From positions 5,626,322 to 5,690,321 of the forward strand of contig NZ_CP036273.1 of assembly GCF_007747215.1 (NCBI RefSeq): DNA of 64,000 nt, written 5' to 3'. Source of the stretch: Urbifossiella limnaea. Lineage in GTDB: Bacteria > Planctomycetota > Planctomycetia > Gemmatales > Gemmataceae. Position 1 is the first letter of the stretch; each line of letters opens with the position of its first letter. Made by a program: the position numbers and the translations under genes. Positions 7,113 through 63,682 of this stretch are shown here, piece after piece. The notes beneath the pieces are model-generated. The model was not told where the DNA came from, ran no database searches, and saw only the letters and a list, made by a program, of their open reading frames with translations.

Positions 7113-7196
7113 CGGCGAGCGGCCGGCGTCAGCCGGCTGGTGGCGACCTCAGGTGTCTGAGTCCGCCACCAGCCGGCTGACGCCGGCCGCTCGCCG
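7113..7196. repeat. Long palindrome, GGCGAGCGGC family, copy 1
   Basis: About 33 bases of perfect complementarity: the left arm starts CGGCGAGCGGCCGGCGTCAG and the right arm is its reverse complement ending at 7196. A second small stem (CTCAG, loop GTGT, CTGAG) caps the loop. The arm contains a nested palindrome GCCGGC-GTCA-GCCGGC. It sits between the stop codon of the preceding gene and the 3' end of RNase P RNA, whose terminator T-run is directly adjacent. Confidence 0.9.
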
Positions 7197-7219
7197 AAAA
7201 AGCCGGAGGGTCTGCCGGC
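7197..7219 (-). terminator. Terminator of RNase P RNA
   Basis: On the minus strand GCCGG-CAGACCCT-CCGGC is followed by five U. The stem shares bases with the last paired strand of the RNase P P1 helix, as is common for rnpB. Confidence 0.7.
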
Positions 7220-7706
7220 CGGCGTGTAAGCCGGGTTCTGTCCCGCCGCGGCCTTGCGACCACGGCGGCGACGGCCATTTATCTAGCCCCACGGTTGCCC
7301 GTGGGGTCGAGCAGCCTACCCGGGGATCGTAACGGACCGGGCCGGTCCTGTCCCCTGCTTGGCCTTGCTCCCGGTGGGGTTTGCCGAGCCGGCCGGTCAC
7401 CCGGCCGCTGGTGCGCTCTTACATTAAGGGCTTTCGCCCCGCACCATTTCACCCTTACCTTTCGTCACTCGTCATTCGTCATTCGTCATTCGGGGGGCAG
7501 ACCGAAAGGTTCACGCCCCTCGAATGACGGATGACGAATGACGAGTGACGACGAGGCGGTATCTTTCTGTTGCACTGTCCCGCCCGCTGGCGGCCCGGGC
7601 CGGTCCCGAAGCCGTTACCGGGGGTGGGCGTTACCCACCACCGCACCCTGTGGAGCCCGGACTTTCCTCCCCTTGCGGGGCGGCCGTCCCGCCGGCCGTC
7701 AGACCC
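7208..7706 (-). ncRNA. rnpB: RNase P RNA (bacterial type A)
   Basis: The catalytic RNA that matures tRNA 5' ends. On the minus strand the universal blocks appear in order: GGAGGAAAGTCCGGGCTCC near the 5' end, GTGCAACAGAAAGATACCGCC, GGTAAGGGTGAAATGGTGC, GTAAGAGCGCACC, GGGTAGGCTGCTCG, CTAGATAAATGGCC and GACAGAACCCGGCTTA at the 3' end. I set the ends by the P1 helix: 5' GGGTCTG-A-CGGCCGGCG pairs with 3' CGCCGGCCG-G-CAGACCC. The RNA is about 499 nt, long for the family, mostly because P12 is replaced by a 90-nt palindrome. It is transcribed divergently from ribF, from a start inside a 75-base gap. I did not find a confident promoter. Confidence 0.96.
7462..7551. repeat. Tandem-heptamer palindrome inside rnpB (P12 arm)
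   Basis: The left arm is four consecutive CGTCAYT heptamers followed by CGGGG; the right arm is the reverse complement with one mismatch and one bulged base, giving a helix of about 34 bp. It lies exactly where P12 of RNase P RNA should be, between GGTAAGGGTGAAA and ACCGCC. The loop (GGCAGACCGAAAGGTTCACG) is unrelated to standard P12. Confidence 0.9.
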
Positions 7707-22849: not shown

Positions 22850-22918
22850 CTCGTTAGGCCGGGGCGCAAGCCCCGTCGGGCTCTAACGCCCACGGGGCTT
22901 GCGCCCCGGCCTAACGAG
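22850..22918. repeat. Long palindrome, GGCCGGGGCGCAAG family, copy 1
   Basis: Left arm CTCGTTAGGCCGGGGCGCAA... and its reverse complement on the right, 27 paired bases without mismatch and more with one bulge; loop about TCTAAC. It lies 46 bases upstream of the VOC gene, so it may be in that gene's leader. Confidence 0.88.
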
Positions 22919-23475: not shown

Positions 23476-23543
23476 CGTTAGGCCGGGGCGCAATCCCCGT
23501 TCGGGGTTCTGACGCCCGACGGGGCTTGCGCCCCGGCCTAACG
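23476..23543. repeat. Long palindrome, GGCCGGGGCGCAAG family, copy 2
   Basis: CGTTAGGCCGGGGCGCAATC on the left and GCTTGCGCCCCGGCCTAACG on the right, about 28 paired bases with two mismatches. It follows the VOC gene stop and may serve as its terminator. Confidence 0.87.
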
Positions 23544-23627: not shown

Positions 23628-23701
23628 GCACCCGTAGCTCAACTGGATAGAGCATCGGTCTTCGGAACCGAGGGTTAGAGGTTCAAATCCTCTCGGGTGT
23701 A
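23628..23701 (+). tRNA. tRNA-Arg (anticodon UCG)
   Basis: GCACCCG pairs with CGGGTGT in the acceptor stem (first pair G-U), D arm AGCTCAACTGGATAGAGC, anticodon arm TCGGT-CTTCGGA-ACCGA with anticodon TCG, and T arm AGAGG-TTCAAAT-CCTCT. The 3' CCA is not encoded; the discriminator is A. It decodes CGA and probably CGG. It lies 38 bases upstream of the CBS gene, and the leader between them contains that gene's Shine-Dalgarno. Confidence 0.95.
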
Positions 23702-27408: not shown

Positions 27409-27489
27409 GGCGAGCGGCCCGCGTCAGCGGGCTGTTCCCGAGCGCATTTCGTGCGCTCGGGAACAGCCCGCTGACGCGGGCCGCTCGCC
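27409..27489. repeat. Long palindrome, GGCGAGCGGC family, copy 2 (perfect 38-bp arms)
   Basis: The left arm GGCGAGCGGCCCGCGTCAGC... pairs over 38 bases with no mismatch to the right arm; the loop is TTTCG. Compared with copy 1 the inner segment reads GCCCGC-GTCA-GCGGGC instead of GCCGGC-GTCA-GCCGGC, so paired positions changed together. It lies 12 bases after one exported-protein gene and 24 bases before the next. Confidence 0.93.
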
Positions 27490-46717: not shown

Positions 46718-46805
46718 GATGATCGAGGATTGAGGATCGAGGATTGGGAGGGGCCGACGGCACTTCCCGATTCCTCCCAATCATCAATCCTCGATCATCG
46801 ATCAT
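46718..46805. repeat. Tandem-heptamer palindrome between regulator and histidine kinase
   Basis: The left arm is GATCGAG-GATTGAG-GATCGAG-GATTGGG (7-bp units) and the right arm is CCCAATC-ATCAATC-CTCGATC-ATCGATC. Pairing is imperfect but register-consistent over about 33 bases. It ends only 2 bases before the histidine kinase ATG and occupies the place where a Shine-Dalgarno would be. Confidence 0.8.
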
Positions 46806-46807
46806 AA

Positions 46808-48448
46808 ATGGAGAGTCCCGTGCCACGGACGGCGGTGGGGCGGCGCGCGGCGGACCTGCCGTGGCTGTGCCCGAACACGACCGGGCTGGTCGCGCTGGCC
46901 GAGCGGCCGGACGACCTCCCCGCGCTCGCCGTCGCCGACCCAGCGTTGCTGGCATTTCTTGCGCGGTTCGCGCTCGGCACGGACGGCCGCGTCTGCCCCC
47001 AACGCTTGAACGGACCGCAGTTGCCCGAGGCGGCGGCCGCGTTCCTCGCTCACTCCGAAGCCGGCTGGCTCGACCCGCTCTCGGCGGTAATCGTTGAGAT
47101 CGATGCCGTCGGCGGCCGCGCGGCGGAAGTAGCACGATCGCTCGCCGAACAGACGGGCCGCGCCGACCCGGACGCCGCGGAATTGGCCGCGCGGTTGGCG
47201 CCGCTCGGGTGGTACGCCGTCGCCGCGGCGGACAGGGCGGCCGCGGTTGCGTGCCTGCGGGCCGCGGACCCGGCTGCCTACCAGCGCGAGCATTGGGGAC
47301 ACGACGCCCATGCAATCACCCGGCGGCTGACGATGCGGTGGCGCTTCCCCGGGTGGTTGGCGACTGCGCTCGGCGGGCTCGGCCTGCCGGACTCGGCGCG
47401 CGCCGACGCCCTGGCCGACGTGGTGGCGCTGGCCGTCGCCGAAGCCCAGCGCGAGACCCGCGACCTGGGGCTGACGCCGAAGGTGGACGTTCAGCGGCTG
47501 CACGCCCGCCTGGCGAGCGGCCCGCGTCAGCGGGCTGTGCCTTTCGTCGCTGATGGGTGGGAGCAAGCGCACGCCGACGCGGGCCGCTCGCCTTCGGCCC
47601 TCAACCCGAATCCGTACCGCGTGCCGCTGCTACCGACGTTGCTCCGCACCGCCGCCGACGCCCGCCGCCGCAACGGCGCCGCGCTGGTGCTGCGCCTGGA
47701 AGCCGAGATCGACACGCTGCACGCCCGGCTCGCTGATGAGACCGCAAACGTCGATTTGCAGGCGGCGAAACTGGCGGCGCTGGCCGAGTTCGCGGCCGGG
47801 GCCGGGCACGAGATCAACAACCCGCTCGCCGTCATTTCGGGCCACGCCCAGCGGCTCATTCGCACCGAACAGGACGACGACCGCGCCGACAGTCTTCGCA
47901 CCGTCGTCCGCCAGACGCAGCGAATTGCCGGCATCCTCCGCGAGGTGATGCAGTTCGCCCGCCCGCCGAAGCCCACGCCCGGCCGGGTGGCGGTCGCGGA
48001 GTTGTTCGCGGCGGTGGTGACGGAGCAAGAGCCGTTCGCCGCGGAGCGGTCGGTGCGGCTCGAGGCGACCGACGCCGCCGGGTCCGTCGACGCCGACGCG
48101 GGTCAGCTACGGACGGCGGTCGCGGCGGTCGTCCGCAACGCGATCGAGGCGGCCGGCGCCGACGGCTGGGTCCGCCTCCGGGCCGAAGCCGGCGCGACGA
48201 CCGTGCGGCTCCTGGTCGAGGACGGCGGGCCGGGACTGACGGCGGACGTGGCGACGCACGCCTTCGACCCCTTCTACTGCGGCCGACCCGCCGGTCGCGG
48301 TCGCGGGCTCGGCCTGCCGACCGCCTGGCGCCTGGCCCGCCAGAACGGCGGCGACCTGCGCCACGAACCCGGCGCAGGCCCCACGCGGTTCGTGTTCACG
48401 TTCCCCGCCGCGCGGGAATCGGCATTCCCGACGCGGGAAGCGGCGTAG
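46808..48448 (+). CDS. Sensor histidine kinase, HDOD-like N-terminus, palindrome in frame
   Basis: A 546-residue kinase. Residues about 20-230 are helical with features of an HDOD-like regulator (FLARFALGTDGRVCPQRL, LAARLAPLGWYAVAAA). The dimerisation helix has phosphoacceptor H334 (GAGHEINNPLAVISGHAQRL), and the ATPase domain shows VVRNAIEAAG, EDGGPGL and GRGLGLPTAWRLA. Residues about 236-262 (LASGPRQRAVPF...ADAGRSP) are encoded by the GGCGAGCGGC palindrome. The ATG at 46808 has no Shine-Dalgarno because a palindrome ends just before it; the GTG at 46820 (VPRTAVGRR) has GGAGAG 5 bases upstream and could be the real start. Confidence 0.85.
   Translation: MESPVPRTAVGRRAADLPWLCPNTTGLVALAERPDDLPALAVADPALLAFLARFALGTDGRVCPQRLNGPQLPEAAAAFLAHSEAGWLDPLSAVIVEIDAVGGRAAEVARSLAEQTGRADPDAAELAARLAPLGWYAVAAADRAAAVACLRAADPAAYQREHWGHDAHAITRRLTMRWRFPGWLATALGGLGLPDSARADALADVVALAVAEAQRETRDLGLTPKVDVQRLHARLASGPRQRAVPFVADGWEQAHADAGRSPSALNPNPYRVPLLPTLLRTAADARRRNGAALVLRLEAEIDTLHARLADETANVDLQAAKLAALAEFAAGAGHEINNPLAVISGHAQRLIRTEQDDDRADSLRTVVRQTQRIAGILREVMQFARPPKPTPGRVAVAELFAAVVTEQEPFAAERSVRLEATDAAGSVDADAGQLRTAVAAVVRNAIEAAGADGWVRLRAEAGATTVRLLVEDGGPGLTADVATHAFDPFYCGRPAGRGRGLGLPTAWRLARQNGGDLRHEPGAGPTRFVFTFPAARESAFPTREAA
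47512..47592. repeat. Palindrome, GGCGAGCGGC family, copy 3, in frame in the histidine kinase
   Basis: The left arm GGCGAGCGGCCCGCGTCAGC matches copy 2; the right arm GACGCGGGCCGCTCGCC pairs only over the outer 17 bases, and the inner right part is diverged. It is read in frame without a stop. Confidence 0.85.
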
Positions 48449-50744: not shown

Positions 50745-50901
50745 CACATCCCTCCGATGCGGCATGCGCCGCTTTGCCACCAGTCGGAAGACCGGCGACG
50801 CCCCGAGTCTCGGGGCTACGCGGGCAGTCCCCGGGCTTTTTTGCGCGCATCGATTCCGTATCCCATCCGGCGTGCCCACCCTCTCCGAGGCCGCGCCGGA
50901 C

Positions 50902-53900
50902 ATGCCGGATTCGCTCCCCCAGCCCTTCAAGAAGCTCCTCGTCGCCAACCGCAGCGAGATCGCCACCCGGGTGTTCCGCTCGGCCCACGAGCTCGGCATC
51001 CGCACGGTCGCGGTGTACAGCCACGAAGACCGCTTCGCCCTCCACCGGTTCAAGGCCGACGAGGCGTACCAGGTCGGCAAGCCCGGCGAGCCCATCCGCT
51101 CGTACCTCGACATCCCCGGCATCGTGGCTCTGGCGAAGTCCGTGGGCGTGGACGCGATTCACCCCGGCTACGGCTTCCTGAGCGAGAACGCCGGCTTCGC
51201 CCGCGCCTGTGCCGACGCCGGCATCACGTTCGTCGGCCCGAAGCCGGACATCCTCGACAACCTCGGCGACAAGGTCGCAGCCCGCGCCATCGCCAAGAAG
51301 GCCGGCGTCCCCGTCCTGTCGGGGACTGACAACCCGCTGACATCCGCCGACGCGGCTTCGACACTCGCCGACGCGCTGGGTTACCCGGTGATCGTGAAGG
51401 CGTCGATGGGCGGCGGCGGGCGCGGGATGCGGGTGGTGCGGTCGGCGGACAAGTTGAAGGAGTCGGTGGAGTCGGCCCAGCGCGAGGCGGGCACGGCGTT
51501 CGGCGTGCCGGACGTGTTCCTGGAGAAGTTCGTCGAGCGGGCCAAGCACATCGAGGTGCAGCTGATCGGCGACCGCCACGGCGGGCTCGTTCACCTGTTC
51601 GAGCGCGACTGCTCCATCCAGCGGCGGCACCAAAAGGTCGTGGAGTTGGCCCCCGCCCCGAACCTGCCCGAGAAGGTGCGGAAGGAGATTCTCGACGCGG
51701 CGCTGGCGGTCGGCGGCGCGGTCGGGCTCGACAACGCGGGCACGGTCGAGTTCCTGTACGACACCGACGCCGGCAAGGTGTACTTCATCGAAGTCAACCC
51801 GCGCATCCAGGTCGAGCACACGGTCACCGAACAGGTGACGGGCTTCGACATCGTGCGCAGCCAAATCCTGATCGCCGGCGGGCTCCCCCTGAATCACCCC
51901 GAGGTGGGGCTGGTGCAGGAACAGATCGCCACGCAGGGGTTCGCCATCCAGTGCCGGGTGACGACGGAAGACCCCGCGAACGGCTTCGTGCCCGACTACG
52001 GCCGGCTGACGGCGTACCGCTCCAGCGGCGGCCCCGGCGTGCGGCTCGACGGCGGCACCGCGTTCGGCGGGGCGATCATCACGCCGTACTACGACTCGCT
52101 GCTGGTAAAGGTGACCGCCAGCGGCCGCCGCTTCGCCGACGCCGCAACGCGGATGGAGCGCTGTCTGCAAGAGTTCCGCATCCGCGGCGTGAAGACGAAC
52201 ATCCCGTTCCTGCTGAACCTGATCGAGCACCCGGAGTTCCTGGCCGGGAACGTGACGACGCGGTTCCTGGACGAGACGCCGGACCTGTTCAAGCTGTCCG
52301 GCCGCCGCGACCGCGCGACGAAGCTGCTCGCCTACGTCGCCGACGTGATCGTGAACGGCCACCCGGAGGTCCGTGGTGAAGGGGTGAAGGGGCGAAGGGG
52401 CGAAGGGGTGACGACCGGGCCGGGTTCCCTCACCCCTTCACCCCTTCACCCCTTCACCCCTTCACCGGCGCTCCCTGAAGGCACCCGCGATTACTTCAAG
52501 GCCCACGGCGCCAAGAAGCTCGCCCAGTGGGTGAAGGAGCAGAAGCGCCTCCTCGTCACCGACACGACGATGCGCGACGCCCACCAGTCGCTCCTGGCGA
52601 CGCGGATGCGCACCGCCGACATGCTCGCCGTCGCCCCGCGCTACGCCGCGGCGCACGCCAACTTCTTCTCCCTGGAGATGTGGGGCGGCGCCACCTTCGA
52701 CACGTCGATGCGCTTCCTCAAGGAGTCGCCGTGGGACCGGCTCGCCCGGCTGCGCGAGGCGGTGCCAAACATCCTGTTCCAGATGCTGCTCCGGGCCGCG
52801 AACGCCGTCGGCTACTCGAATTACCCCGACAACGTGGTGGACGAGTTCGTCCGCCTCTCGGCGCAGCACGGCATGGACATCTTCCGCGTGTTCGACGCCA
52901 ACAACTGGCTGCCGAACCTCCGCGTCGGCGTCGAGGCCGTGCTGAAGACCGACGCCATCTGCGAAGCGGCCGTGTGCTACACCGGCGACATCCTCGACCC
53001 GCGGCGCGACAAGTATTCGCTGACCTACTACGTGACACTGGCGAAGGAACTGGAGAAGCTCGGCACGCACTTCCTGGCCATCAAGGACATGGCCGGCCTG
53101 CTCAAGCCGTACGCCGCGAAGAAGCTCGTGAAGGCGCTCCGCGAGGCGGTCGGGCTGCCGATCCACTTCCACACGCACGACTCGGCCGGCGGGCAGGTCG
53201 CGGCCTACGTCATGGCCGCGGAGGAAGGCGTCGATATCGTCGATTGCGCCTTCGCCCCGCTGGCCGGGAACACGGCGCAACCCAGCCTCAACGCGCTGCA
53301 AGAGACGCTGCGCTTCACCGACCGCGACCCCGGTTTCGACTTCGACACGCTGCGCGAAACGGCCCTCTACTGGGAGCGCGTCCGCGGCTACTACGCGGCG
53401 TTCGAGACGGGGCAGCTGGCGGCGTCGGCCGACGTGTACCAGCACGAAATGCCCGGCGGCCAGTACGCCAACCTGTACCAGCAGGCGCAGTCGCTCGGGC
53501 TCGGCGACCGGTGGGCGGAGGTCGGCCCGATGTACGCCGCCGTGAACCAGCTGTTCGGCGACATCGTCAAGGTCACGCCCACGTCGAAGGTTGTGGGCGA
53601 CGCGGCGCTGTTCCTCCTGTCGCACGGCCTGACACCGGCGGACGCGCTCGACCCGAAGAAGGCCGTGTCGTTTCCCGAGTCGGTGGTCGAGTTCTTCGAG
53701 GGGAAGCTCGGCCAGCCGCCGGGCGGGTTCCCGAAGGAGCTCCAGGCGAAGGTGCTGCGCGGCAAGAAGCCGCTGACCGACCGCCCGGGGGCGCTTCTCT
53801 CGCCGACCGACTTCGGCAAGGCGCGGGTCGACTTGGAGAAGAAGCTGGGCCGGCCGGCGAGCGAGACGGACGTGATCTCCTACGTCCTGTACCCGAAGGT

Positions 53901-54393
53901 GTTCCCCGAGTTCGCCGCGGCCGAGGCCAAGTACTCGGACCTGAGCGTGCTGCCGACGCCGGTGTTCTTCCACGGCATGGAGAAGGGCGACGAGGTCAGC
54001 ATCGAGATCGAGTCGGGTAAGACGTTGATCGTGAAGTTCCTGACAGTCGGCGAGCCGCAGCCGGACGGCCGGCGCGTCGTGTACTTCGAGCTGAACGGCC
54101 AGCCGCGCGAGGTCGTGGTGGTGGACCGGTCGCTCGACGCGACCGCGACCAAGAGCCGCCCGAAGGCCGAGGTCGGGAACGCCAAGCACGTGGCGGCGCC
54201 GATGCCCGGCGCGGTGGTGGGAGTGGCCGTGGCCCCGGGCGAGGAGGTCGCCGCCGGGCAGAAGCTGATGACGCTCGAAGCGATGAAGATGGAGACGACG
54301 CTCTACGCCACCGTGGCAGGCAAGGTGGCCGAGGTGCTGGTCCGCCCCGGCATCCCGGTCGAGGGTGGCGACCTGGTGGTGCGATTCGAGTAA
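50902..54393 (+). CDS. pyc: Pyruvate carboxylase with palindrome-encoded insert
   Basis: A 1163-residue biotin enzyme that makes oxaloacetate from pyruvate and bicarbonate. Biotin carboxylase (about 8-460) has KASMGGGGRGMRVV, EVNPRIQVEHTVTE and the C-terminal lid; the carboxyltransferase domain begins near 545 (VTDTTMRDAHQSLLATR) with FDANNWL..CYTGDILDP and GHHFHTHDSAGG-like LPIHFHTHDSAGG; biotin is attached at K1129 (LEAMKMET). Residues about 492-522 are encoded by an octamer palindrome, in the linker between the carboxylase and transferase parts. It is the tetrameric, single-chain form. The ATG has no strong Shine-Dalgarno. Confidence 0.95.
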   Translation: MPDSLPQPFKKLLVANRSEIATRVFRSAHELGIRTVAVYSHEDRFALHRFKADEAYQVGKPGEPIRSYLDIPGIVALAKSVGVDAIHPGYGFLSENAGFARACADAGITFVGPKPDILDNLGDKVAARAIAKKAGVPVLSGTDNPLTSADAASTLADALGYPVIVKASMGGGGRGMRVVRSADKLKESVESAQREAGTAFGVPDVFLEKFVERAKHIEVQLIGDRHGGLVHLFERDCSIQRRHQKVVELAPAPNLPEKVRKEILDAALAVGGAVGLDNAGTVEFLYDTDAGKVYFIEVNPRIQVEHTVTEQVTGFDIVRSQILIAGGLPLNHPEVGLVQEQIATQGFAIQCRVTTEDPANGFVPDYGRLTAYRSSGGPGVRLDGGTAFGGAIITPYYDSLLVKVTASGRRFADAATRMERCLQEFRIRGVKTNIPFLLNLIEHPEFLAGNVTTRFLDETPDLFKLSGRRDRATKLLAYVADVIVNGHPEVRGEGVKGRRGEGVTTGPGSLTPSPLHPFTPSPALPEGTRDYFKAHGAKKLAQWVKEQKRLLVTDTTMRDAHQSLLATRMRTADMLAVAPRYAAAHANFFSLEMWGGATFDTSMRFLKESPWDRLARLREAVPNILFQMLLRAANAVGYSNYPDNVVDEFVRLSAQHGMDIFRVFDANNWLPNLRVGVEAVLKTDAICEAAVCYTGDILDPRRDKYSLTYYVTLAKELEKLGTHFLAIKDMAGLLKPYAAKKLVKALREAVGLPIHFHTHDSAGGQVAAYVMAAEEGVDIVDCAFAPLAGNTAQPSLNALQETLRFTDRDPGFDFDTLRETALYWERVRGYYAAFETGQLAASADVYQHEMPGGQYANLYQQAQSLGLGDRWAEVGPMYAAVNQLFGDIVKVTPTSKVVGDAALFLLSHGLTPADALDPKKAVSFPESVVEFFEGKLGQPPGGFPKELQAKVLRGKKPLTDRPGALLSPTDFGKARVDLEKKLGRPASETDVISYVLYPKVFPEFAAAEAKYSDLSVLPTPVFFHGMEKGDEVSIEIESGKTLIVKFLTVGEPQPDGRRVVYFELNGQPREVVVVDRSLDATATKSRPKAEVGNAKHVAAPMPGAVVGVAVAPGEEVAAGQKLMTLEAMKMETTLYATVAGKVAEVLVRPGIPVEGGDLVVRFE
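52375..52466. repeat. Tandem-octamer palindrome in frame in pyc
   Basis: The left arm is GGTGAAGG-GGTGAAGG-GGCGAAGG-GGCGAAGG-GGTGA; the right arm is more than four exact TCACCCCT octamers. Pairing covers about 37 bases with two wobble positions. The open reading frame is maintained, giving EVRGEGVKGRRGEGV and SLTPSPLHPFTPSP. Confidence 0.92.
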
Positions 54394-57698: not shown

Positions 57699-59423
57699 AT
57701 GCACCCCGCCGACCACGACGAGCGCCTCGCCGCCCTGATCGAGCAGCTGACCGCCGAGCAGAAGGCCGGCCGTCGCGCAGACATCACCGCCGCAGCAGCC
57801 GCGAACCCCGATCTGGCGGCGGAGCTGACCGACCTGTGGGCCGTCGCCCAGTTCGCGGCCCTCGCCGTCCCTACCCCCACCGTCGCCTACGACCCGCGCC
57901 CGACGACACCGGCTGCCGCCGCGCCCGCCGCGCCGCCGCGGGCGTTCGGCGACTTCGAGATCGTCGGCGAGCTGGGCCGCGGCGGCATGGGCGTCGTGTA
58001 CAAGGCCCGGCAGAAAAGCCTCGACCGCACGGTCGCCTTGAAGATGATCCGCGAGGCGCACCTGGCGAGCCCCGACGACGCGGCCCGGTTCCGCACCGAG
58101 GCCGCGGCGACGGCCCGGCTGAAGCACCCGAACATCGTGACCGTGTACGAGGTGGGCACGGTCGGCGGACAGGCGTACCTGTGCATGGAGTACGTTGATG
58201 GCCCGACGCTCGCCCAACGGGTCGCGGCCGACGGCCCGCTGCCGCCGCGCGAGGCGGCCCGGCTCGTGGCCGTCATCGCGCGGGCCGTCCAGCAGGCGCA
58301 CGCGGAAGGCATCCTGCACCGCGACCTGAAGCCGTCCAACATCCTCCTCGGTAACGCGGAATGCGGAATGCGGAATGCGGAATTCCCGTCCCCGGCTCCC
58401 GGCTCGGATTCCGCATTCCGCAATCCGCAATCCGCACTCAAGGTGAGTGACTTCGGCCTCGCCAAGCGGCTCGACAGCGGCGGCACGCTGACCCGCACCG
58501 GGGCCGTCGTCGGCACGCCGGCGTACATGAGCCCCGAGCAGGCCGGCGGCCGCAAAGACCTGACCGCCACCGCCGACGTGTACTCGCTCGGCGCCATCCT
58601 CTACGAACTCCTCACCGGCCGGCCGCCGTTCCAGGCCGCGCACCCCGTCGACACGCTGTTGCTCGTGCTGGAACAGGAGCCGGTGCCGCCGCGCGACCTG
58701 AACCCGACCGTGGACCGCGAGCTGGAACTTGTCTGCCTCAAGTGCCTCCAGAAGCCGCCGGAGTTGCGCTACCCGTCGGCCGGGCTGCTCGCCGCCGACC
58801 TGGAAGCCTATGCGGCCGGTGAACCGATCGCGGCGCAGCCGAGCGGGCTGCGGTTCCTGCTGGCGCGCGTGTTCCGCGAGACGCACCACGCCGAGGTGCT
58901 GGAGAACTGGGGCAAGCTGTGGATGTGGCACAGCCTCATGATCTTCCTGCTGTGCCTCGCCACGCAGGCGATGGCGTGGGCGAGTGTCGGCGACCACGTG
59001 TACTACCTGGCCCTGTGGTCGGTCGGGCTGGTGACGTGGGGGGCGATCTTCTGGCAGCTGCGGCGCCGCGCCGGGCCGGTGCTGTTCGTGGAGCGGCAGA
59101 TCGCGCACGCCTGGGCGGCGGGCGTGAGCGCGAGCATCATCATGTTCGGCATCGAGTGGATCATCCCGCTGCCGGCGCTGTCGCTGTCGCCGGCGGTGGC
59201 GGTCGCGGCCGGGATGGTGTGCCTGTTCCAGGCCGGCATTCTGTCGGGGAAGTTCTACCTGTGGGCGGCGCTGAACTTCGCCGCCGCGCTGGTCATGCCG
59301 CTGATCCCGGGAGCGAGCGTCCTCCTGTTCGGCGTGGTGTCGGCGCTGTCGTTCTTCATCCCGGGCCGGGCTTACCACCGGCAGCGCGTGCTGGCGGACG
59401 CCCGCCGCGCTCGTACCGCTTGA
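57699..59423 (+). CDS. Ser/Thr kinase with palindrome insert and multi-helix C-terminus
   Basis: A 574-residue membrane kinase. Kinase domain about 86-345: LGRGGMGVVYKA, K115 (VALKMI), HRD D209 (HRDLKPSNILL), DFG D251 (KVSDFGLAKR), GTPAYMSPEQAGG and DVYSLGAILYELLTGRPPF. Residues 219-247 (NAECGMRNAEF...AFRNPQSAL) are palindrome-encoded and sit between the catalytic loop and DFG, where other kinases have a short turn. The C-terminus has about six membrane helices (from LMIFLLCLATQAMAWAS to LLFGVVSALSFFIPG). The kinase starts 9 bases after rsmH. Confidence 0.92.
   Translation: MHPADHDERLAALIEQLTAEQKAGRRADITAAAAANPDLAAELTDLWAVAQFAALAVPTPTVAYDPRPTTPAAAAPAAPPRAFGDFEIVGELGRGGMGVVYKARQKSLDRTVALKMIREAHLASPDDAARFRTEAAATARLKHPNIVTVYEVGTVGGQAYLCMEYVDGPTLAQRVAADGPLPPREAARLVAVIARAVQQAHAEGILHRDLKPSNILLGNAECGMRNAEFPSPAPGSDSAFRNPQSALKVSDFGLAKRLDSGGTLTRTGAVVGTPAYMSPEQAGGRKDLTATADVYSLGAILYELLTGRPPFQAAHPVDTLLLVLEQEPVPPRDLNPTVDRELELVCLKCLQKPPELRYPSAGLLAADLEAYAAGEPIAAQPSGLRFLLARVFRETHHAEVLENWGKLWMWHSLMIFLLCLATQAMAWASVGDHVYYLALWSVGLVTWGAIFWQLRRRAGPVLFVERQIAHAWAAGVSASIIMFGIEWIIPLPALSLSPAVAVAAGMVCLFQAGILSGKFYLWAALNFAAALVMPLIPGASVLLFGVVSALSFFIPGRAYHRQRVLADARRARTA
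58356..58435. repeat. Tandem-heptamer palindrome in frame in a kinase domain
   Basis: Left arm: GCGGAAT repeated three times and GCGGAATTCC; right arm: GGATTCCGCATTCCGCAATC and CGCAATCCGC, about 30 paired bases. The unit is 7 bp, the reading frame is preserved. Confidence 0.9.
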
Positions 59424-62710: not shown

Positions 62711-63682
62711 CTATGACACCCACCACCGCCACGCGGCGCCCAGTAACAACTTCACCTTCTCGCCCTTCCCCACCTCGGGCCGCCGCGCCCACACGTCGTA
62801 CCCCTGCCGCTCGACGGCCCGCAGGATCGCCCGGCCGCCGGCGATGAACAGGTCGATGTCCACCCGCGCCTCGCGCGGCAGCAGCGGCAGCAGCTTCGCG
62901 CCGCGGTCGAAGTAGCCGCGGGCGCGCTCGACCTCGAAGCGCATCAGATCGCGGAACGCCGGCGTACACCGCCTGGCATCCAACTCGTCGTCGGCGTACC
63001 CGAGGCGGGCGCGGTCCTCGGCCGGCAGGTAGACGCGACCGATGGCGAAGTCGCGGGCCACGTCCTGCCAGAAGTTGGCGAGCTGCAGGCCGGTACACAC
63101 CTCGTCGGACAGCGCCGCCCGCTCGGGACTGAAGCAGCCGAACAGGTACAGCACCAGCCGGCCGACGGGGTCGGCGGAGCGGCGGCAGTAGTCACGCAGT
63201 TGCGCGAAGGTGTCGTACCGCTTGATGATCTGGTCCTGCTCGAAGGCAGAGAGCAAATCCAGGAACGGCTCCGCGGGGATGTCGAAGCGGCGGATGGTTT
63301 CGCGGAGAGCGACCATCACGGGGTGCGTGGGCGTGCCACGATAGCAGGTGAGGAGTTCGCAGCGCCACCACGCGAGGAGGTCGAGCGCGACCTGGCCGCC
63401 GCTGGTTTCGTCGGCGAGATCGTCGGACCAGCGGCAGTAGGCGTAGACGGCGTGGAAGTGCCGCACGAGCCGCCGCGGCAGCAGCGCCGACACGACGGTG
63501 AAGTTCTCGTAGTGCGACCGGGCGACGTGAGCGCAGTAGGCGCGGGCCTGCGCCAAAGTCGGCGAGCGGCCCGCGCCAGCGGGCTGTTTCTGAGCGCCGC
63601 TGTCGCTCTCAGGAACAGCCCGCTGACGCGGGCCGCTCGCCGGCCCCCACCGCGCCAGCTCCCGCGCGAAGTCCCAGCTCAC
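62711..63682 (-). CDS. hpnC: Squalene/phytoene synthase family (HpnC-like)
   Basis: A 323-residue prenyltransferase-type enzyme. The first Asp-rich motif is DDLADE (87-92, after YAYCRWS) and the second is QDVARDFAIGRVYLP near 196-210, with ARHHYENF-like SHYENFTVVSALLPR before them; this arrangement points to HpnC, which with HpnD and HpnE makes squalene for hopanoids. HpnD-like or phytoene synthase activity is the alternative. Residues about 15-41 are encoded by a palindrome. The GTG start (VSWDFARELARWG) overlaps the preceding stop in GTGA. Confidence 0.85.
   Translation of the reverse strand: MSWDFARELARWGPASGPRQRAVPESDSGAQKQPAGAGRSPTLAQARAYCAHVARSHYENFTVVSALLPRRLVRHFHAVYAYCRWSDDLADETSGGQVALDLLAWWRCELLTCYRGTPTHPVMVALRETIRRFDIPAEPFLDLLSAFEQDQIIKRYDTFAQLRDYCRRSADPVGRLVLYLFGCFSPERAALSDEVCTGLQLANFWQDVARDFAIGRVYLPAEDRARLGYADDELDARRCTPAFRDLMRFEVERARGYFDRGAKLLPLLPREARVDIDLFIAGGRAILRAVERQGYDVWARRPEVGKGEKVKLLLGAAWRWWVS
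63561..63641. repeat. Palindrome, GGCGAGCGGC family, copy 4, in frame in hpnC
   Basis: GGCGAGCGGCCCGCGCCAGC... on the left and its reverse complement on the right, 32 of 34 positions pairing; loop of about 14 bases. It is read in frame, adding GPRQRAVPESDSGAQKQPAG to the N-terminal region. Confidence 0.92.

What the first reader, a model, noticed from the sequence alone, without database searches (positions are those of the whole stretch)
7462..7551. RNase P RNA carries a 34-bp helix of tandem heptamers in place of P12
The rnpB gene is complete and its conserved blocks are normal, yet the P12 arm is a long, nearly perfect hairpin built from CGTCAYT repeats with a loop unrelated to usual P12. 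The unit size and layout match palindromes found inside coding genes of this window, suggesting a hairpin element inserted in the only RNase P RNA gene and tolerated because it folds outward from P11.
Basis: partly seen in the sequence, partly recalled or inferred. Interest (0 to 1): 0.72.

Follow-up and report, generated by a model that had tools for sequence, protein, structure and literature searches.

The report
Heptamer-repeat hairpin replacing RNase P's P12
One arm (P12) of this planctomycete's only RNase P RNA has been replaced by a hairpin of seven-letter repeats that is also scattered through its genome; about four in ten relatives carry such an arm, usually made of a different repeat, so this site of an essential ribozyme is invaded and swapped again and again, as was reported for some cyanobacteria.

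Summary
rnpB (window 7699-7211, minus strand, 213 bits, sole copy) has an ordinary core. Its P12 (7460-7554) is a hairpin with 37-nt arms, 95% complementary, built of CGTCATT heptamers (fold z = -10). The same unit forms at least 28 other hairpins in this genome, with near-perfect arms and unrelated loops.

Across 79 Gemmataceae rnpB genes, 36 have a short P12 and 43 a long one; 34 of the long ones are tandem-heptamer hairpins, mostly with a different heptamer per genome. Sister genomes with about 96-99% identical cores carry P12s that do not align: wholesale replacement. By one criterion 29/79 P12s hold such a palindrome, against none in 83 kb of rnpB flanks and 7 in 464 kb of this genome: a hot spot.

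New: the planctomycete instance, its scale, tempo and measured enrichment. How the elements move, and whether the mature RNA keeps the arm, are untested.

The parts
7211..7699 (-). rnpB, class A RNase P RNA, only copy in the genome
   Evidence: RF00010 213.3 bits; single match in the whole genome
7460..7554 (-). P12 arm made of tandem CGTCATT heptamers; 95 nt between P11 and GGTAAGGGTGAAA
   Evidence: RNA fold z = -10
7462..7498 (-). 3' arm (in RNA sense) of the P12 hairpin
   Evidence: inverted repeat, 37 nt, 95% complementary
7515..7551 (-). 5' arm (in RNA sense) of the P12 hairpin
   Evidence: inverted repeat, 37 nt, 95% complementary
58356..58435 (+). palindrome of GCGGAAT heptamers, in frame inside a Ser/Thr kinase gene (57699-59423); same architecture, other unit
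   Evidence: residues 219-244 have no counterpart in PknB 1mru
52375..52466 (+). palindrome of octamers (GGTGAAGG), in frame in the linker of pyruvate carboxylase (ORF 50764-54393)
   Evidence: absent from 28 of 29 relatives, one of which (G028) has its own heptamer palindrome there
46719..46805 (.). palindrome of GAGGATT-type heptamers between two ORFs

Best explanation
The P12 arm of this RNase P RNA is a copy of a dispersed palindromic tandem-heptamer element, a planctomycete counterpart of the cyanobacterial STRRs, that has taken the place of the ordinary short P12. Shown: the arm belongs to a family with at least 28 other CGTCATT hairpins in this genome; relatives carry either a short P12 or a heptamer hairpin, usually of another unit; replacement is wholesale and recent; P12 is occupied far more often than the genome at large. 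Inferred: new P12s arise at the DNA level, by insertion of an element or by template switching at an existing hairpin; the arms are kept complementary by hairpin-templated correction and the units alike by slippage; they persist because an extended P12 projects outward from P11 and leaves the catalytic core alone, so the essential ribozyme tolerates them.
For: Family in the own genome: 150 matches vs 0 in the control; 28 distinct hairpins; six other places match most of the P12 element at 75-84%. P12 heptamers are enriched in their own genome for CGTCATT (rank 1 of 95), AAGGATG (G061 rank 1) and GGGCAGT (G017 rank 4). Different units per genome, 34 of 43 long P12s of period 7 against a shuffle mean of 4.4 and maximum of 9. 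Sister genomes with about 96-99% identical cores have unrelated P12s. At least 14 state changes on the core tree. Heptamer hairpins also near the 5' end (P3 position) of three rnpB genes. Hot spot: 29/79 P12s vs 0 in 83 kb of rnpB flanks and 15 per Mb in the own genome. Same pattern in cyanobacteria.
Against: The heptamer of G053's P12 (CAGTTGG) is found nowhere else in that genome. P12 takes almost only period 7 although the own-genome palindromes also have periods 8, 10 and 12. No target-site duplication or junction was identified. The link between a heptamer P12 and dispersed heptamers (p = 4e-4) has too few independent pairs on the tree. Retention of the arm in the mature RNA and activity were not tested.
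Confidence: 0.72

Rival explanations
1. The arm grew in place: polymerase slippage by 7 nt and template switching between the arms enlarged an ancestral P12, without any element coming from elsewhere.
For: G053's unit occurs only in its rnpB. P12s are nearly all of period 7. Template switching is a documented way to make perfect palindromes (PMC6649704), and heptanucleotide repeats have been linked to polymerase slippage (PMC4679880).
Against: The own genome's P12 unit is its most dispersed tested unit and has full-length relatives elsewhere. Sister genomes differ in the whole arm and loop, not in unit number. Three of four tested P12 units are among the most dispersed of the family in their own genomes.
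Confidence: 0.25
2. The long P12 is selected for an RNA-level function, for example protein binding or stability of the ribozyme.
For: Complementarity is kept despite turnover; the 5' arm is richer in purine in 26 of 34 Gemmataceae and 43 of 58 cyanobacteria; P12 is a hot spot in two phyla.
Against: 36 of 79 relatives do without it, one in the same genus. No sequence is conserved. Copies outside RNA genes are at least as complementary. P12 is reported to be sometimes dispensable, for example in cyanobacteria (PMC2858038).
Confidence: 0.1
3. The arm is a REP/BIME-type element moved by a RAYT (Y1) transposase.
For: G000 has three Y1 transposase matches. Genomes with a heptamer P12 have more Y1 genes per Mb (median 0.72 vs 0.29, p = 3e-4). 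REP-like palindromes of another sequence are abundant in the window.
Against: G010 has a heptamer P12 and no Y1 match. Tandem-heptamer arms are not part of the REP definition (20-40 bp with an unpaired GTAG or CGTC end tag, PMC3733652).
Confidence: 0.12

Closest known systems
STRR sequences in RNase P RNA genes of heterocyst-forming cyanobacteria (Vioque 1997, Nucleic Acids Res 25:3471; title seen, content from memory)
   Same: Tandem heptamers lengthening P12; unrelated units in close relatives; units dispersed in the genome. Reproduced here: 62 of 71 long cyanobacterial P12s have period 7, and 8 of 12 strongly periodic palindromes near these genes have period 7.
   Different: Another phylum and other units; here the dispersed copies read out are palindromes with near-perfect arms; replacement is shown between about 96-99% identical cores; enrichment at P12 is measured.
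Rickettsia palindromic elements (RPE)
   Same: Palindromic, inserted in frame in protein genes and also in the RNase P RNA and tmRNA genes (PMC2229807).
   Different: RPEs are 105-146 bp elements of conserved sequence; here the arms are tandem heptamers of changing sequence, loops are unrelated, and P12 is hit across a whole family.
REP/BIME elements with RAYT transposases
   Same: Small dispersed palindromes, reported also in Planctomycetes (PMC3733652).
   Different: Defined end tags, no tandem-heptamer arms, mostly extragenic.
TAACTGA heptamer repeats of Beggiatoaceae, cyanobacteria and Bacteroidetes (PMC4679880)
   Same: Dispersed tandem heptamers with patchy distribution.
   Different: Direct repeats of one unit, mostly upstream of start codons; only one indirect repeat reported in that genome.

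Membership tests
STRR-type repeats in RNase P RNA P12 (cyanobacterial precedent) | Tandem heptamers | tested here: met
   lag-7 identity 0.69 in this P12; 34 of 43 long P12s of the family have period 7
STRR-type repeats in RNase P RNA P12 (cyanobacterial precedent) | Located in helix P12 of RNase P RNA | tested here: met
   between P11 ACCGCC and GGTAAGGGTGAAA in rnpB
STRR-type repeats in RNase P RNA P12 (cyanobacterial precedent) | Unrelated repeats in close relatives | tested here: met
   five sister pairs with non-alignable P12s
STRR-type repeats in RNase P RNA P12 (cyanobacterial precedent) | Unit dispersed in the same genome | tested here: met
   150 matches, at least 28 hairpins; not met for G053
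STRR-type repeats in RNase P RNA P12 (cyanobacterial precedent) | Not required for catalysis in vitro | not testable with these tools
   needs a cleavage assay
Rickettsia palindromic elements | Palindromic element inserted in frame in protein genes and in RNA genes | tested here: met
   rnpB P12; kinase and pyc inserts of the same architecture but other units
Rickettsia palindromic elements | Conserved element sequence of about 105-146 bp across copies, loop included | tested here: not met
   arms shared, loops unrelated, elements mostly about 60-105 bp
REP/BIME with RAYT | 20-40 bp palindrome with an unpaired GTAG or CGTC tag at one end | tested here: not met
   37-nt tandem-heptamer arms; CGTC occurs inside the paired unit, not as an unpaired end tag
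REP/BIME with RAYT | Mobilised by a Y1 transposase of the same genome | tested here: inconclusive
   Y1 present and correlated, but too few independent pairs and G010 has none

The most novel reading that the evidence does not exclude
Helix P12 of RNase P RNA is a true landing site: an undescribed class of hairpin-seeking heptamer elements, active in Planctomycetes and independently in Cyanobacteria, preferentially enters the P12 stem-loop and replaces its occupant within species-level time, so that the arm of an essential ribozyme behaves like a cassette site.
Probability: 0.35. Interest if true: 0.78.

Novelty: new member of a known kind. Interest (0 to 1): 0.6.

Why it matters
RNase P RNA is essential and single-copy, yet one of its arms turns over while the rest of the gene stays nearly identical. 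This gives a clean system for asking how small palindromic repeats move and why period 7 recurs in unrelated phyla: one defined site, many near-identical cores, visible before-and-after states. It also shows that P12 length and sequence are poor markers of kinship in this family, and such inserts may lower covariance-model scores (213 bits here, up to 307 in relatives with a short P12), so that some rnpB genes may be missed.

Tried and rejected
1) Ancestral arm shared by relatives: rejected, sequences differ even between sister genomes. 2) Chance hairpin: rejected. 3) A second, normal rnpB copy that would make this one dispensable: none. 4) Excision of the arm from the RNA: not testable here. 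5) Link to Y1 transposases: a raw association not upheld by independent pairs. 6) Link of heptamer P12s to genome-wide heptamers: Fisher p = 4e-4, but too few independent pairs. 8) A regular expression for the pyc linker found nothing and was replaced by alignment. 9) Vioque 1997 and the small-dispersed-repeat paper that I looked up by DOI are not held. 11) No target-site duplication was seen in the flanks listed, by eye only.

Full report
Observation. The window carries rnpB on the minus strand at 7699-7211, a full-length class A RNase P RNA (RF00010, 213.3 bits), and the 7.8-Mb genome has no other. Between P11 and the conserved GGTAAGGGTGAAA the gene has a 95-nt P12 (7460-7554) whose arms, 7462-7498 and 7515-7551, are 37 nt long and 95% complementary with 16 nt between them. 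The arms are tandem heptamers (CGTCATT, with CGTCACT at the base mirrored as AGTGACG in the other arm). As RNA the arm folds as one rod, 10 standard deviations better than shuffles. The core aligns normally to the family model. Its long P9 and the insert in P13 fit what I recall of published Gemmata RNase P RNAs (Butler and Fuerst 2004, from memory).

The unit is a genome-wide repeat. Three CGTCATT units with up to two mismatches match 150 times in this genome; the pattern read backwards, never. Around these matches I read out 28 distinct hairpins, in the order AATGACG...CGTCATT or the reverse, most with perfect arms and all with unrelated loops and flanks. BLAST with the P12 element finds six other places that match most of it at 75-84% identity; where read out they have the same polarity. 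By a simple codon-position test none of the 28 passes in frame through a gene: the AATGACG arm contains TGA, which a 7-nt period brings into every frame within 21 nt, so this family should be confined to non-coding DNA and RNA genes. Stop-free units do enter genes: GCGGAAT at 58356-58435 in a kinase, where PknB (1mru) has no counterpart to residues 219-244, and an octamer hairpin at 52375-52466 in the pyruvate carboxylase linker, where G028 has its own heptamer hairpin and 28 other relatives have neither. In pyc the net gain is only a few residues, so there too the element replaced most of the linker.

Relatives. I extracted P12 from 79 Gemmataceae rnpB genes. Thirty-six are short (7-47 nt). 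Of 43 long ones, 34 have 7 as the best period among 3-12; shuffled arms give 4.4 on average and at most 9. The unit differs between genomes: AAGGATG, CAGTTGG, GGGCAGT, AGTCCGT, GTGGCGA, AGGGTTT and many more. In the same genus, G090 has GGTCATT, G092 a short AGCTATC arm and G091 a plain 10-nt P12. Sister pairs show the tempo: G053/G054 have cores 98.7% identical, G063/G067 97-98%, G010/G012 96-97%, G013/G025 97-98%, G016/G019 96%, and in each pair the P12s do not align. On a tree of the cores, heptamer and non-heptamer states need at least 14 changes. Three genomes also carry a heptamer hairpin near the 5' end of rnpB, where helix P3 lies. In other Planctomycetia most P12s read are about 20-35 nt, but heptamer P12s recur in a few lineages (G237, G157, G223, G232).

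Hot spot. With one criterion (inverted repeat, arm at least 16 nt, strong periodicity) 29 of 79 P12s hold a period-7 palindrome. The flanks of rnpB in 30 genomes (83 kb) hold none, pyc loci of 29 genomes (183 kb) none, and 464 kb of the own genome, rnpB excluded, 7, that is 15 per Mb. At that density 79 stretches of 100 nt should hold about 0.1, or about 1 if all copies lay in roughly 12% of non-coding DNA (my assumption). The criterion misses degenerate copies (for example the one in G028 pyc), equally in all sets; the 79 genomes are related, so the events are fewer than 29. Either P12 is preferred for entry, or inserts there are retained far better than elsewhere. P12 takes almost only period 7 (29 of 31 periodic ones), whereas the own-genome sample also has periods 8, 10 and 12; I cannot explain this.

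Is the heptamer of a P12 that of its genome? For CGTCATT the own genome ranks first of 95, for AAGGATG G061 ranks first, for GGGCAGT G017 ranks fourth. For CAGTTGG, G053 has it in rnpB only. Genomes with heptamer P12s more often have dispersed copies of two tested units (15 of 34 against 4 of 45, p = 4e-4) and more Y1 transposase genes per Mb, but the tree allows too few independent pairs to uphold either.

Precedent. Vioque (1997) reported STRR sequences within RNase P RNA genes of heterocyst-forming cyanobacteria (title seen; from memory, they lengthen P12, are not needed in vitro, and differ between close strains). I found the same in 118 cyanobacterial loci: 71 P12s are long and 62 of these have period 7. 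Rickettsia palindromic elements are known in the RNase P RNA and tmRNA genes (PMC2229807). The kind is therefore known. The planctomycete case adds a phylum, dispersed palindromic copies, replacement between nearly identical cores, and a measure of enrichment. I did not find this described for Planctomycetes, but the library lacks most subscription papers.

Mechanism. Shown: membership of a dispersed family, wholesale replacement, enrichment at P12. Inferred: entry at DNA level. Because arms co-vary also in copies outside RNA genes, complementarity need not reflect RNA selection; hairpin-templated correction by template switching (discussed for other palindromes in PMC6649704) and slippage of 7 nt would suffice to maintain arms and units. 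An extended P12 projects outward from P11, and P12 is reported to be sometimes dispensable, for example in cyanobacteria (PMC2858038), which would explain tolerance. Growth in place remains a serious rival because of G053 and the restriction to period 7.

Noticed in passing
window 7113-7196, 27409-27489, 47512-47592, 63560-63642: REP-like palindromes with the shared core GGCGAGCGGCC(C/G)GCGTCAGC(G/C)GGCTG; many more copies in the sampled genome (L117, L124, L129, L131, L132). A different family from the heptamer hairpins; one lies about 15 nt past the 3' end of rnpB (as modelled) and could act as its terminator.
   Followed up: partly
window 22850-22918 and 23476-23543: Two near-identical palindromes CTCGTTAGGCCGGGGCGCAAGCCCCGT upstream of the tRNA gene at 23628-23701.
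   Followed up: no
L320 1695-1783, L321 1003-1092, L322 1073-1179, L323 1038-1126, L117 10873-10962: Subfamily of CGTCATT/GGTCATT hairpins with a shared non-heptamer part (CCCACCA(A/C)TGAC..AAGGAAGAC) whose base changes are matched in both arms although the copies lie outside RNA genes, as if one arm were copied from the other.
   Followed up: partly
L035 (5' part), L048, L073: Heptamer hairpins near the 5' end of rnpB (P3 position) in G025, G052 and G019, in G019 with another unit than its P12.
   Followed up: partly
P12 of Gemmataceae and cyanobacterial rnpB loci: The 5' arm (RNA sense) of heptamer P12s is richer in purine than the 3' arm in 26 of 34 Gemmataceae (p = 0.003) and 43 of 58 cyanobacteria (p = 0.0003); unexplained, and not corrected for relatedness. 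The P12 of this window is an exception.
   Followed up: partly
L304 (G028 pyc) and window 52375-52466: The same linker of pyruvate carboxylase was hit by unrelated repeat palindromes in two genera (octamers here, TCAGGGG heptamers in G028).
   Followed up: partly
L080 (G028 rnpB): P12 with AATGACC heptamers and another long palindrome nested inside the hairpin: an element within an element.
   Followed up: no
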